From Actinomycetota bacterium (GTDB lineage Bacteria > Actinomycetota > CADDZG01 > JAHWKV01): a DNA stretch of 64,000 bases. The stretch covers positions 448,927-512,926 of the forward strand of contig JAUJPC010000002.1 of assembly GCA_030447305.1 (NCBI GenBank). The letters run 5' to 3'. The notes under the pieces are model-generated. The model was not told where the DNA came from, did no database searches, and saw only the letters and a program-made list of their open reading frames with translations. The position numbers and the translations under genes were made by a program. Positions 6,991 to 60,089 of the stretch are shown here, one piece after another; within the stretch, counting starts at the first letter, position 1; each line of letters starts with the position of its first letter.

Positions 6991-7487
6991 TGCGACCTAG
7001 TTAAGACAGCCGGTCTTCAACTTGGAAACGTTCATATCTTGAGCTCCCCCATGTACATCCGGCCAGCCGTGCTATCGATGCTACCCGCGTTTCCAAAGTC
7101 CAATCGGACCCGGAAGACCTCCGAGATTAGATACGGGCGGCTCGAATCTACAGGGTCAGCTAACGTAGCGGTTTGGCCGTCTCCCAAGGCCGTGACAGAA
7201 GAGTGAATTAAGCTACGAACGCCTTGCTCAAGGAGCCCGCATCATCTGAAAACGACTGTCCCCTTACCGGGGGATTCCCCCAGGTTAGACCCACGGCCCG
7301 TGTGTGCCCACACATTTCTACTTTAAAAAGCGACACTCTTGCCGATCTCTACTTCGAGCGTTTTCATCTGGCTGGACCGATGAGATGGCTAACCTCACCG
7401 ATAAGACGACCTGGCCGTGAGGCGAGCGAGCAATCTCTCCGGACCTGGCAAACAGTGTCCGGACGACCGAAGCGAAGGAGAAGGTTC

Positions 7488-8117
7488 ATGTTTGAGTCAT
7501 TATTCGCCACCCTGGCGGCGAAGATTGCTGCCGGCACTATGGCCGCCGTAATGGCTGTCACCTCAGGGCTTGCTGCCGGTGGTCATCTGCCCGACGAAAT
7601 GCAGACTGCCATCTCCCGTGCGCTAAACGAGATTGGTTTCGACATTCCTGGCGGCGACACCTCGGAAGGTGCCGAGGATACCGACGACTCGGATGACCCG
7701 GCAGATGTCGAGGACTCTGACGACGACTCGGACGACCCGGCAGATGTCGAGGACTCTGACGACGACTCGGACGACCCGGCAGATGACGAGGACTCTGACG
7801 ACGACTCGGATGACCCGGCAGATGACGAGGACTCTGACGACGACTCGGACGACCCGGCAGATGTCGAGGACTCTGACGACGACTCGGATGACCCGGACTC
7901 TGACGACGACTCGGATGACCCGGACTCTGACGACGACTCGGATGACCCGGCAGATGTCGAGGACTCTGACGACGACTCGGATGACCCCGCGGATGTCGAA
8001 GACTCGCAGGACGACGCAGATCACGACGACTCGGTTGACGACGAAGATGTCCGCGACTCCGACGACGACGAGCATGCAGAGGTTGCTGACTCTAACGATG
8101 ACTCGGAAGAGGACTAA
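7488..8117 (+). CDS. Asp-rich low-complexity repeat protein with hydrophobic N-terminus
   Basis: MFESLFATLAAKIAAGTMAAVMAVTSGLAAGG then (DSDDPADVEDSDD)n; RBS GAAGGAGAAGG just upstream of ATG 7488. Confidence 0.7.
   Translation: MFESLFATLAAKIAAGTMAAVMAVTSGLAAGGHLPDEMQTAISRALNEIGFDIPGGDTSEGAEDTDDSDDPADVEDSDDDSDDPADVEDSDDDSDDPADDEDSDDDSDDPADDEDSDDDSDDPADVEDSDDDSDDPDSDDDSDDPDSDDDSDDPADVEDSDDDSDDPADVEDSQDDADHDDSVDDEDVRDSDDDEHAEVADSNDDSEED
7686..8012 (+). repeat. Tandem 39-bp coding repeat (with two 27-bp short units)
   Basis: Unit GACTCGGAYGACCCGGCAGATGWCGAGGACTCTGACGAC repeated; units at 7881 and 7908 lack GCAGATGTCGAG. Confidence 0.95.
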
Positions 8118-8449
8118 CAGACTCGGTAATCGAACCACGACTAGTGGTTGCTTGCGCATTGAACACCAAGCCACGCCTTACGGTCGAGAAGGGTGGCCGC
8201 TGACCCGCCACATGTCTCCTGCCCGGCGGCGGCCTAAGTACTGCAACCAAGGGCGGAGACGTTGGGTTCTTTTTCGAACGTCCCCACTTTCACTTATACG
8301 AGCGTGTAACGCACGCCTCTAGAACTCCAGGTCATCTCCACACGCGTATGGTGTGGTCCGGCTGCCTCACAGTGACGGGATCCCTAAAAGTGGTCCACCG
8401 CATGTGAGAGTCCAATCGCCCACAATGTTGGGCAGAGAGGACGGACCAC

Positions 8450-8717
8450 GTGAAACGACACCGCCACACCCCCGAGCAGGTGATCAGAAAGCTGCGAGAG
8501 GGCGAGAAGATCCTCAACGAAAGCAAGGACCTCACCCAGGTGCTGCGCCATCTCGAGATCTCCGAGGCGACCTGGAACCGCTGGCGCAATCAGTACGGCG
8601 GGATGAAGGCCGAGGAGGTCAAGCGGCTCAAGGAGCTGGAGAAGGAGAACTCCCTGGCTGAAAAAGATCGTGGCCGACCAAGCTCTGGACATCGACATGC
8701 TCAAGGAGCTGGCGGAG
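8450..8717 (+). pseudogene. IS3-family OrfA (frameshifted and truncated by IS110)
   Basis: MKRHRHTPEQVIRKLREGEKILNESKDLTQVLRHLEISEATWNRWRNQYG; +1 nt relative to the copy at 59556-59872. Confidence 0.88.
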
Positions 8718-8734
8718 GATGCTCCTATTGATTG

Positions 8735-9792
8735 TCAAGCCATGGCCAGGGCTTTCATGTCCTCCTCGAGCGTCTTGAAGACCTCCCTTGCGATGTAGCG
8801 CTTAAGGCAACGAATGATGTCTTTCTTGGAGAGCCCATCACCGGTCCGCTTGGCCACGTAGGCCTGGGTGCGGGCGCAGTAGCGCATGCGAACCAGCGCC
8901 ACGACGTACAAGGCTTGGTTGGCAGATCTGTCGCCTCCGCGATGAAGCCGATGCCGGCGGATATTCCCACTTGAGGCCGGGATGGGCGCTACCCCGCACA
9001 GGTGAGCAAACGATGGCTCCGATCCAGGCGCTCCGGATTCGATCCGGCGGTGACCAGCAGCTGGCCGGCTGTCTCGGTGCCGACGCCGAAGATGGCTAGG
9101 GTTCGAGGAGCCGCCTTGGCGACCAAAAGGGCAAGGCTCCGATCAGCTTCGGCGATCTCTTCGCGCAGCGCCAGAATTCGTTTGGCCAGGCAGCGCAAAG
9201 CAAGCTTCGTTCCCTGAAGCGGGTCGCCGAGCTGATCCGCGTGCGGCCGGAACTGAGCGCAGGTTCTGATCAGCTTGGTCTTCGGCAGAGGCTGTAAGAC
9301 GACCCTCAGCTCCTCCGGCGCGGTGACTATCATGCTCCGTACGGTGTTGATCGCAGCCGTCTCGGCTTTTAGCGCACCGGAACGGGCGGCGCGCAAAGCC
9401 CTGATCGACTCCACCAGACCGCTGCGGTCCTTGGGCACGGCACTGGCGGTGCCTGCGAGGACCGAACGAGCGGCCGCCTCAGCATCGATGGGGTCCGATT
9501 TGCCGGATTGACGGCGGGTCCGGCGGTCGGGGCGATCGACTTCGACCACATCCACTCCGGTGCTCATCAGGTAGCTGCACAGTCCGGCCCCCGTAGCTGC
9601 CGGTTCCCTCACTCCAACCTTGTCGAGGCGTCCAAACCGGCTCATCCATGCAAACAGCTGCCGGTAGCCCTTGAGGCTGGCCTCGAACTCGGCGCTCCCG
9701 ACTACCCGACCGACCTCATCGACCACCGCCGCATGGTGGGCATGGCCGTGTGTGTCCACTCCACCGATCACAACCCTCGTGCTTTCTGCCAT
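8735..9792 (-). pseudogene. IS110-family transposase (one frameshift near 9028)
   Basis: MAESTRVVIGGVDTHGHAHHAAVVD...SGKSDPIDAEAAARSVL...; C-terminal part in another frame (LCGVAPIPASSGNIRRHRLHRGGDRSANQALY...GLSKKDIIRCLKRYIAREVF). Confidence 0.85.
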
Positions 9793-10165
9793 GATGCTGA
9801 CCACCTTCCCTGAGAGGGCACGCACCGGCCGGAGGGCGGACACACCAGTAACGGGACTTGATAGCGCAAGCTCCTATGAAGTCACAGCCGCCCGTCCGGT
9901 CGCGTGCAACGTTGGATTTCCTGCTCGGCCGCACCGGTCGACAGATCCTGAGCATGACACCGCAGAGGTCAGGAAATTGGCGAGTCAGGCCAGCTGGGCG
10001 GAGTGGCGGGCACTTCGAAACTGAAGGCTGCCGCAACACCTTCCTAGTTGGGCCGACACATCCTCAGACCGACACATCGGGTCAGGAAACTTCCGAGTCA
10101 GACCGCTTCGACAGGAGCTGCGCACCATCCTCTGCTCGAAGAACGTCCACATCCGGATCATCACT
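9793..10165 (-). ncRNA. Candidate IS110 bridge-RNA region (5' non-coding end)
   Basis: About 370 bp non-coding DNA upstream of the transposase, with two 25-bp near-repeats (9967-9991, 10080-10104) that differ mainly in their core. Confidence 0.35.
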
Positions 10166-11057
10166 GGAAACTTCAACCCCGCAGCGCCGCCGACGGGCCG
10201 TGGTGGCTTTGAGGACGCGCTTCGGGGTCTCCGAGAGAAGGGCTTGCAGGGTTGCCGGCCAGCACCGCTCCACCCAGCGCCTGCAGCCCGTCGGCCGCCG
10301 GCCGAGGACGACACCAAGCTTAGAGGCAAGCTGCGCCAGATCGCCAAGGCGCATCCCCGCTACGGCTGGAAGATGGCTCACCGGGTGCTTGTTCGTGAGA
10401 ACTGGCTGATCAACCGCAAGCGAGTGCAGCGGATGTGGCGTGAGGAAGGTCTAAGACGACCCGCCAACAGCCGCAAGCGCCGGCGGCAGAGCCCGGACAA
10501 CCCCGAACGGCTGATCGCCACCGAGCCCAACCAAGTCTGGGCGTTGGACTTTTCAGTTCGATGAGACCACCGACGGGCGGCGACTCAAGTTGCTGAACAT
10601 CGTCGACGAGTGCAGCCGGGAGGCGCTGGCGATGCGGGTGGCCCGCCGCTGCGACGCCGACGACGTGGTCGCTCAGATTGAGCGGCTGGTCGAGCAGCGG
10701 GGTGCTCCTCAGTTTCTCAGGATGGATAACGGTCCCGAGCCGATTGCTTGGGCCCTGCGGGAATGGTGCCGCCTGTCGGGCATCGGGACCTGCTACATCG
10801 AGCCGGGATCACCCTGGCAGACCCCTTACGTTGAGTCGTTCAACGGCCGAGCTCGCGACGAATTGCTCAACAGCGAGGAGTTCGGCACCCTCATCGAGGC
10901 GCAGGTCGTTGTGGAGGCCTGGAGAAAGGAGTACAACACCTTCCGACCCCACTCGGCTCTGGGCGGGCTGACCCCCGCAGAGTTCTACGCCAAGTGGATC
11001 AGCGAGGCACCAACTGGCACTCTCACACTGAGTGGACCACAAAGTGGGGCCCCGTCA
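10166..11057 (+). pseudogene. IS3-family OrfB (rve transposase, +1 frameshift near 10553)
   Basis: FGVSERRACRVAGQHRSTQRLQP; RYGWKMAHRVLVRENWLINRKRVQRMWREEGLRR; GAC TTTT CAGTTCGATGAG breaks WALDFQFDETTDGRRLKLLNIVDE. Confidence 0.88.
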
Positions 11058-11420
11058 ACAGTTTCCGGACCGCACGATAACTTCACACCGAGCATGGCCT
11101 ACCTGCTTTCTAAAGAGTCGTGCCGGACGGTGAACATCTGGCCCGGCCCCGAGAGCCATCTCTTGATGCTGCGATAACCTCAAGGCCCATAAAGACCAGG
11201 GCTTCCGTTGAGATTACCAATAAGGAAGGAGATGACTTTTCGGGCTCGCCTCTCCTTACCCAGAATTCTGGCGCGTTAGGGCGGCCAACTTAGACGAATA
11301 CTGTGGCGTCCAAAACCAAGGAATGGACATCATTCAATTGGTCAGAGGCATTATGGATGGATTTCGGACCAAACCTGCGCGTACGACGACAGACTGTTGC
11401 ATCAGCGGCTACTGGCTGAC

Positions 11421-57624: not shown

Positions 57625-58320
57625 TTGAACGACAAGGATCCGAGTCGCACGCTGTTCGATGGCCAAGGTGTCATCAAGTTTCACAGCGAAGTCGATCGTC
57701 GAAGATTTCTTAAGTACGCCGGCATGGTCGGCGTCGGTAGCACTCTGGCTTTGACCGGAGTGGCATGCGGCACCGATGACAATGGCGGGACAGCGGCCTC
57801 TCCCGGCGCAACCGCATCGCCCACCGGTGCCGCAGCAAAGGACGCGGATGTCGGCATTCTCAACTACGCTCTGACGCTGGAGTTGCTCGAGGCGGAGTTC
57901 TACCGCCAGGGATTGGCCGGCAACATTCTCAGCGGCCGGGAGCGTGAGCTTATCCAGCCGATCGGACAGCATGAACAAGCCCATGTCGACGCGTTGACCA
58001 AGACTATCGGAGACGTGGGCGGAACCCCCGCCGAGAAGCCGGAGTTTCAATTTCCGCCCGGTACCTTCACCGACAAGGCGATGTTCCTCAAAACTGCCTC
58101 TACCTTGGAGGAGCTCGGTGTCACCGCCTATCACGGCCAGGTGACCAAGATTGAGTCGCCGGAGATTCTCGGCGCCGCCGCCTCGATCGCCGGAGTGGAG
58201 TCCCGTCACGCCGCCATCCTCGCCGCCTTGACGGGCGGCAAGCCGTTCCCTGCTCCGGTGGAGGCGTCCAAGGATATGCAGGAAGTGCTGGACGCCGCCA
58301 AGCCGTTCATCAAGAGCTAA
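57625..58320 (+). CDS. Tat-signal ferritin-like domain protein
   Basis: VDRRRFLKYAGMVGVGSTLALTGVACG; ILNYALTLELLEAEFYRQGLAGNIL. Confidence 0.85.
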   Translation: MNDKDPSRTLFDGQGVIKFHSEVDRRRFLKYAGMVGVGSTLALTGVACGTDDNGGTAASPGATASPTGAAAKDADVGILNYALTLELLEAEFYRQGLAGNILSGRERELIQPIGQHEQAHVDALTKTIGDVGGTPAEKPEFQFPPGTFTDKAMFLKTASTLEELGVTAYHGQVTKIESPEILGAAASIAGVESRHAAILAALTGGKPFPAPVEASKDMQEVLDAAKPFIKS

Positions 58321-58334
58321 GGGGGAAAACGACT

Positions 58335-58931
58335 ATGAATCGACGCAACTTTCTCAAGACCTCGGCAGCGGTGATCCCAAGCACCGTGGCGTTGCAGATG
58401 CTCGGTGGCGGCCACTGGGTCCTGGCGCAGACAGCCGACTTCAAGGACGACATCGATGTTCTTAACTATGCCCTGACGCTTGAGTTTCTGGAATCGGAGT
58501 TCTACCGGCAAGGCAACTCCGCCAACATCCTTCGGGGCCAGGAGGCGGAGTACTTGAGGCAGATCGGTGCCGACGAGGACGCTCATGTTCAGGCGCTGTC
58601 CCAAACGATCATGCAGCTGGGCGGCACGCCGGTCGCCAAGCCAACCGTCGAGTTCGGCGACGCGTTCAGCAGCCGGCAGAAGTTCCTGACCACCAGCCAC
58701 ACCTTCGAGAACCTCGGCGTCTCCGCCTATCTCGGAGCCGCCGGATCCATCAAGAGCAAAGACGTGCTGCAGGCGGCTGCTGGCATCTTCGGCGTCGAGG
58801 CACGCCACGCCGCCGTGGTGGGAAGCATCCTCGGATTGCCGGCGGAGGGTGGGGTGTACATGGGCCCCACGGAAACGCCCAAGCCAAGGGCGGAAGTGTT
58901 GGCGGCGGCAAAGCCGTTCATCAAGAGCTAG
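58335..58931 (+). CDS. Ferritin-like domain protein (paralog)
   Basis: MNRRNFLKTSAAVIPSTVALQML; VLNYALTLEFLESEFYRQGNSANIL. Confidence 0.85.
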   Translation: MNRRNFLKTSAAVIPSTVALQMLGGGHWVLAQTADFKDDIDVLNYALTLEFLESEFYRQGNSANILRGQEAEYLRQIGADEDAHVQALSQTIMQLGGTPVAKPTVEFGDAFSSRQKFLTTSHTFENLGVSAYLGAAGSIKSKDVLQAAAGIFGVEARHAAVVGSILGLPAEGGVYMGPTETPKPRAEVLAAAKPFIKS

Positions 58932-59394: not shown

Positions 59395-59555
59395 TTCCCG
59401 GAGTTACCGGTGACCGATCAGATTGCGAAGCGCACCTCTGAGGGGCTATCCAAAAAGGAAATCATCCGCTGCTTGAAGCGCTACATCGCGCGGGAGATCT
59501 TCAAGGCTGGAGCAGGACATGAGGGCTTAGCGGCGGCTTGACATCAATAGGAGCA
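59395..59555 (+). mobile_element. IS110-family transposase C-terminal fragment
   Basis: KRTSEGLSKKEIIRCLKRYIAREIFKAGAGHEGLAAA*; homologous to the C-terminus of the element at 8718-10165. Confidence 0.8.
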
Positions 59556-59872
59556 TCCTCCGCCAGCTCCTTGAGCATGTCGATGTCCAACGCCTGGTCG
59601 GCCACGATCTTCTTGAGCCGGGTGTTCTTCTTCTCCAGCTCCTTGAGCCGCTTGACCTCCTCGGCCTTCATCCTGCCGTACTGATTGCGCCAGCGGTTCC
59701 AGGTGGCCTCGGAGATCTCGAGCAGGCGCAGCACCTGGGTGAGATCCTTGCTCTCGTTCAGGATCTTCTCGCCCTCGCGCAGCTTTCTGATCACCTGCTC
59801 GGGGGTGTGGCGGTGTCGTTTCACGTGATCCGTCCTCTCTGCCCAACATTGTGGGCGATTGGACTCACACAC
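59556..59872 (-). mobile_element. IS3-family OrfA remnant (second copy)
   Basis: VKRHRHTPEQVIRKLREGEKILNESKDLTQVLRLLEISEATWNRWRNQYGRMKAEEVKRLKELEKKNTRLKKIVADQALDIDMLKELAE. Confidence 0.92.
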
Positions 59873-60089
59873 GCGTTGGACTACTTTCAGGGGATCCCGT
59901 CAGGGGGGCTGGATCCGACGTTGAGGGAGTGCTCAATGGATGGGCTTGAGTTGCACGTGGAGTTCTGCTTGCTGGTCTTTTAGCCAGGTCGGTTCCAGCT
60001 GAACTTGTGGTACTCCACGCTCATACGGTAAGAGGACCGGTTATGGATGATGCTGCGAATTCATATCTCGTCTGGGGCGCTGGACGGCG

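What the first reader, a model, noticed from the sequence alone, without database searches (positions are those of the whole stretch)
8718..10165. Two diverged IS110-family elements occupy the same position in two IS3 copies
Seen: in copy 1 (8373-11057, + strand) IS3 OrfA ends at CTCAAGGAGCTGGCGGAGG and continues ATGCTCCTATTGATTGTCAAGCC into an IS110 transposase tail. In copy 2 (59395-59872, reverse complement) OrfA ends at the same base and continues ATGCTCCTATTGATGTCAAGCC into a different IS110 tail. By eye the IS3 parts are much more alike than the IS110 parts, which suggests two independent insertions rather than one duplicated nest. Established: IS110 transposases use a bridge RNA to choose target and donor sites. 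Inference: this IS110 lineage targets the OrfA end of this IS3 family.
Basis: partly seen in the sequence, partly recalled or inferred. Interest (0 to 1): 0.75.

Follow-up and report, generated by a model that had tools for sequence, protein, structure and literature searches.

The report
Jumping gene targets another's frameshift signal
One kind of bacterial jumping gene (IS110 family) carries a guide RNA that steers it into the ribosomal frameshift signal of another kind (IS3 family), splitting it; the same precise insertion recurs in very different IS3 elements of several actinobacteria.

Summary
The window carries a complete IS3 element (8373-11057, 4-bp target duplication ACAG) split by an IS110 element (8719-10166), and a remnant (59902-59425) broken at the same base by a different IS110. 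Two further complete nests lie elsewhere in the genome; related nests occur in Rhodococcus and Mycobacterium. Decisive case: one Rhodococcus IS110 (99.8% identical DNA) sits at the same point of two IS3 elements whose OrfB proteins are only 41% identical, and an empty copy of one host is 100% identical on both sides. In 52 relatives the bridge-RNA left target guide matches the flank of its own insertion (8.4/10; shuffled 4.9; 0 of 5000). The site is not merely 'the OrfA end': it is GGGAAA(C/A/T), in phase as a canonical -1 frameshift heptamer, followed by the OrfA stop. The window's element also carries two tandem target-binding loops, seen in no other locus searched. ISEc21 (IS110) was reported in 2024 to target IS3 at another site, so this is a new variant of a known kind. 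Unresolved: how the nest multiplied in this genome, whether the guide arose once or twice, whether both loops work. No experiment was done.

The parts
8373..11057 (+). IS3-family element, copy 1 (nest N1), interrupted by the IS110; 4-bp target duplication ACAG at 8369-8372 and 11058-11061
   Evidence: ends and duplication read; HTH_Tnp_1, HTH_21 and rve domains; two more complete copies
8450..8718 (+). IS3 OrfA up to the junction (frame broken in N1 by a 1-bp insertion near 8655)
   Evidence: PF01527; alignment of the three nests
8719..10166 (-). IS110-group element inserted in OrfA; the shared core base is the G at 8718 and 10166
   Evidence: junctions; one-base overlap confirmed by an empty site in a relative
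8718..8739 (-). IS110 right end, conserved motif CTTGAC...ATAGGAGCATC
   Evidence: shared by the subfamily
8735..9792 (-). IS110 recombinase gene (352 aa, intact in the other two nests; frame broken in N1)
   Evidence: PF01548 DEDD_Tnp_IS110; intact reading frame in L016
9870..9884 (-). donor-guide part of the bridge RNA (TGACTTCATAGGAGC), repeats the right end
   Evidence: conserved across relatives; role as donor guide inferred from PMC11208160
9916..10015 (-). inner target-binding loop; left guide GCCAATTTCC at 9972-9981, right guide around 9945-9952
   Evidence: covariance model R1, 49 bits, E 1.2e-8
10031..10128 (-). outer target-binding loop; left guide GGAAGTTTCC at 10085-10094, right guide at 10059-10065; matches the occupied IS3 site
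   Evidence: covariance model R1, 35.7 bits, E 8.5e-6; guide-target match
10166..11057 (+). IS3 part after the insert: rest of the split heptamer, OrfA stop and OrfB
59557..59902 (-). IS3 5' end and OrfA, copy 2 (remnant), up to the same junction base
   Evidence: 94% identical to copy 1; PF01527
59425..59556 (+). right-end fragment (about 130 bp, end of the recombinase gene) of a different IS110, coding strand +
   Evidence: 75-81% to copy 1's IS110; tail no closer to it than to L063

Best explanation
The insert is an IS110-group element whose bridge RNA targets the programmed -1 frameshift site of IS3-family elements. [quoted passage not shown] (2) the left target guide GGAAGTTTCC is antisense to GGAAACTTC, the last OrfA codons, which hold the G_GGA_AAC heptamer, and the right guide matches the other half-site; (3) elements of this lineage lie at that site, always antisense, in IS3 elements that are otherwise very different; (4) insertion leaves one shared base and splits the heptamer, separating OrfA from OrfB. 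Inferred: insertion goes through the circular IS110 form and RNA-guided recombination as in IS621; it stops synthesis of the IS3 OrfAB transposase; and the heptamer is a good target because an IS3 can hardly change it without losing its own transposase, so one guide covers many IS3 lineages.
For: Empty site 100% identical on both sides (845 and 300 bp) of a filled Rhodococcus site; the same IS110 (99.76% over 1223 bp) in two IS3 hosts with 41% OrfB identity. Further nests in R. erythropolis PR4, M. ulcerans and M. attenuatum. Left guide matches own flank 8.4/10 against 4.9 shuffled, 0 of 5000; right guide +1..+4 2.66/4 against 1.25, 0 of 5000. Consensus bridge-RNA fold with 16 of 31 pairs showing compensatory change. 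GGGAAA(C/A/T) plus stop at 28 of 30 readable OrfA ends; OrfB open in the -1 frame in 14 relatives.
Against: No transcript, circle or recombination was observed. Frameshifting at this IS3 heptamer is inferred from sequence, not measured. The shuffle tests use related elements, so they overstate independence. Copy 1's own recombinase and OrfA reading frames are broken (perhaps by assembly error). The nest is rare: only this genome among 399 sampled Actinomycetota matched the left-junction pattern.
Confidence: 0.87

Rival explanations
1. One ancestral IS3[IS110] nest was inherited, or moved as a unit by the IS3 ends, and the shared position reflects common descent rather than targeting.
For: The three complete nests in this genome have identical IS110 copies and each a different 4-bp IS3 duplication, so passenger transposition or gene conversion probably did multiply the nest locally.
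Against: It cannot explain one IS110 (99.76%) in two IS3 hosts with 41% OrfB identity, nor the empty site identical on both sides. The remnant's IS110 is too diverged for its 94% identical IS3.
Confidence: 0.08
2. The guide simply follows conserved OrfA codons (G-N/K-F/W, stop); the frameshift signal as such is irrelevant.
For: The guide spans protein-coding codons, and the amino-acid motif is conserved as well.
Against: The glycine codon is almost always GGA preceded by G, in the phase of a slippery heptamer, and OrfB lies in the -1 frame, so the constraint is on nucleotides, not only on residues.
Confidence: 0.15
3. The double target loop is a decaying leftover of an earlier IS110 at the same site, not a working two-guide RNA.
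For: The outer loop fits the model less well (35.7 against 49 bits) and has broken stem pairs; no relative has two tandem loops.
Against: The outer guides, not the inner, match the occupied site, and all three copies keep both loops.
Confidence: 0.6

Closest known systems
ISEc21 (IS110 family, E. coli; PMC11187229)
   Same: An IS110 element with an upstream noncoding guide RNA that targets IS3-family elements at a conserved coding site
   Different: [quoted passage not shown] here the target is the OrfA end with the -1 frameshift heptamer
IS621 bridge RNA system (PMC11208160)
   Same: Left noncoding region with target and donor loops; left and right target guides that match the insertion site
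   Different: IS621 targets REP elements; the recombinases were not compared directly; the window's element has two tandem target loops
IS4321/IS5075 (IS1111 group)
   Same: DEDD elements that prey on other mobile elements (the terminal repeats of Tn21-family transposons, cited in PMC11187229)
   Different: IS1111 group with the guide downstream of the gene; target is a transposon end, not a coding signal
ISAau1 (IS3 family, host element)
   Same: OrfA ends in GGGAAAATTCTGA with OrfB in the -1 frame; its relative in Rhodococcus sp. BH4 is a host of the IS110
   Different: ISAau1 itself was seen only uninterrupted here

Membership tests
IS110 family, IS110 group | DEDD recombinase | tested here: met
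   PF01548 at 2.7e-16 in the window ORF; intact 352-aa frame in L016
IS110 family, IS110 group | long noncoding region upstream of the gene encoding a bridge RNA with target and donor loops | tested here: met
   consensus fold with covariation in relatives; model R1 matches in the window
IS110 family, IS110 group | guide matches the insertion site | tested here: met
   outer left guide 9/10, right guide ATCCTC
IS110 family, IS110 group | no target duplication beyond a short core | tested here: met
   one shared base at the empty/filled pair L243/L058
IS110 family, IS110 group | circular intermediate | not testable with these tools
   needs PCR or reads
IS3 family (host element) | OrfA with HTH, OrfB with integrase core, inverted ends, short target duplication | tested here: met
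   Pfam hits; ends and 4-bp duplications of three copies
IS3 family (host element) | -1 frameshift site between OrfA and OrfB | tested here: met
   heptamer in phase and OrfB in the -1 frame in uninterrupted relatives; frameshifting itself not measured
[quoted passage not shown]
   all nests here are at the OrfA end; ISEc21 target from PMC11187229

The most novel reading that the evidence does not exclude
The window's IS110 has a bridge RNA with two working target-binding loops: the outer guide matches the GNF* form of the IS3 frameshift site (GGAAACTTC) and the inner guide would match the GNW* form (GGAAATTGG), so one element could reach two classes of IS3 host.
Probability: 0.2. Interest if true: 0.75.

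Novelty: new variant of a known kind. Interest (0 to 1): 0.58.

Why it matters
It is a clear natural case of guide-RNA target choice by one mobile element against another, with empty and filled sites that can be tested directly. The choice of a frameshift heptamer suggests a general rule: such elements may aim at the few nucleotides their prey cannot change. It also supplies a large natural set of guide-target pairs for one bridge-RNA subfamily, and a candidate two-loop bridge RNA.

Tried and rejected
Rfam found no known RNA family in the window. A scan of 399 Actinomycetota genomes for the left-junction pattern found only this genome, so such nests are rare. The same pattern in viral contigs gave 75 stretches, none with a matching recombinase. 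Independent (convergent) origin of the IS3 guide in two IS110 clades was suggested by the first tree, but one clade is not rejected (p-AU 0.135), so it is not claimed. Minimum-energy folding of the noncoding region alone was uninformative; the alignment fold was used instead. Simple movement of the three local nests as IS3 passengers was considered but does not explain identical IS110 copies next to 90-95% identical OrfB.

Full report
OBSERVATION. In the window an IS3-family element (8373-11057, ends TGACGGG...CCCCGTCA, duplication ACAG) is interrupted after ...CTGGCGGAGG by an insert (8719-10166) that carries an IS110 recombinase gene on the opposite strand. At 59902-59425 (minus strand) an IS3 fragment is interrupted at the same base by the right end of another IS110. 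The genome holds two more complete nests, on contigs C6 and C2. Each nest has its own 4-bp duplication: ACAG, TGGT, CTTC.

IDENTITIES. Copy 1 against the remnant: IS3 94%, IS110 75-81%. The 81-nt coding tail of the remnant's IS110 is 80.2% identical to copy 1's lineage and 80.2% to a Microbispora element; the median over relatives is 69%. OrfA differs at 15 of 268 bases (Fisher p = 5e-4). This favours a separate insertion in the remnant. Among the three complete nests the IS110 is 99.86-100% identical, OrfA 99.6-100%, the first 215 bp after the insert 98-100%, and the rest of OrfB 90-95% with a mosaic pattern. That block structure fits homologous recombination between IS3 copies better than three separate IS110 insertions, but is not resolved. 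Copy 1 also has several 1-bp indels with almost no substitutions, which may be assembly errors.

OTHER NESTS. Searches of plasmids and genome contigs gave about 90 relatives of the recombinase, mostly 48-62% identical. Those inside IS3 elements at the same place and in the same orientation are in Rhodococcus sp. YL-1, Rhodococcus sp. BH4, R. erythropolis PR4 (two), M. ulcerans (two plasmids) and M. attenuatum; left-end matches without the rest are in Rhodococcus sp. 008 and a second YL-1 plasmid. The YL-1 and BH4 IS110 copies are 99.76% identical over 1223 bp, yet their IS3 hosts share only 41% OrfB identity and no extended DNA homology. A copy of the YL-1 IS3 without the insert is 100% identical over 845 bp and 300 bp on the two sides, with one shared C at the junction. 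Empty copies of the BH4 host, and ISAau1, keep the uninterrupted site CAGAATTTTCCCTTGGCC. One duplicated nest cannot explain this.

GUIDES. The elements share ends (left C[AT]GTGA[GT]GAT; right CTTGAC...ATAGGAGC[AT]TC) and a conserved noncoding left region. Its consensus fold has a target-loop stem and a donor-loop stem, with 16 of 31 pairs showing compensatory changes. The 10 nt after CTGAC[CT]C match the left flank of each element's own insertion: mean 8.4 of 10, 0.88-0.98 at each of the last eight positions, against 4.9 after shuffling, 0 of 5000. The right guide matches the first bases of the right flank: 2.66 of 4 against 1.25, 0 of 5000. The pairs come from related elements, so the shuffles overstate independence, but the flanks differ widely. 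The layout agrees with the published left and right target guides (PMC11208160).

THE SITE. In uninterrupted IS3 relatives OrfA ends GGGAAA(C/A/T), then TT(C/T/G) or TGG or similar, then a stop: 28 of 30 readable cases carry GGGAAA (my count). The heptamer is in the phase of a -1 slippery site, the OrfA stop lies 10 nt after its start, and OrfB is open in the -1 frame for 278-301 codons in the 14 of 19 relatives that passed the script's length filter. G_GGA_AAC is a known shifty heptamer, shown mainly with mammalian ribosomes, and frameshifting is very common in IS3 elements (PMC5009743, PMC4066793). The guide GGAAGTTTCC is antisense to this site, and insertion splits it. The consequence, loss of the IS3 transposase, is inferred.

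TWO LOOPS. A covariance model of the target loop, built from 31 relatives without this element, finds exactly two matches in the window, side by side in the IS110 noncoding region (9916-10015 and 10031-10128), and genome-wide only these two in each of the three nests. No other element among the loci searched has two tandem loops. The outer loop's guides match the occupied site; the inner left guide GCCAATTTCC would match the GNW* form of the same site. The outer loop fits the model less well, so it may be a leftover of an earlier element; whether both work is open.

ORIGIN. IS3-inserted elements fall in two places in the recombinase tree, but a single clade is not rejected (p-AU 0.135).

KNOWN OR NEW. 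[quoted passage not shown] IS110 elements preying on IS3 are therefore known; the frameshift site as target, the range of hosts and the double loop were not found in the papers searched. Most subscription papers are outside that library.

Noticed in passing
window 7682-8069: Tandem repeat array (39-bp unit and longer periods) inside an ORF (7224-8117) rich in Asp and Ser, with no Pfam match.
   Followed up: no
window 57625-58931: Two adjacent Ferritin_2 (PF13668) proteins with weak TAT-signal matches, directly beside the remnant nest.
   Followed up: no
window 8373-11057: Copy 1 carries several 1-bp indels relative to the two other nests with almost no substitutions in the IS110, which looks like uncorrected assembly error in a repeat.
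   Followed up: partly
G000:C4:543633-544140 (L158) and G000:C4:33278-33405 (L160): Further fragments of the same IS3: an OrfB 3' part (92% DNA identity) and a 5' end (83%); no intact uninterrupted copy was found in the genome.
   Followed up: partly
L056 2220-2290 compared with L241: An M. ulcerans plasmid has a 49-bp tandem duplication of the IS110 left end whose border falls exactly at the left target guide, as if the element had recombined at its own guide sequence.
   Followed up: no
L080, L081, L082, L086: Four copies of one IS110 relative in Streptomyces sp. V4I2 lie in near-identical targets (AGGACTCAC...CTCAG), apparently a dispersed repeat.
   Followed up: no
L129: A distant IS110 relative carries the guide-like sequence GAAGTTTCCG, but no IS3 was found around it.
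   Followed up: no
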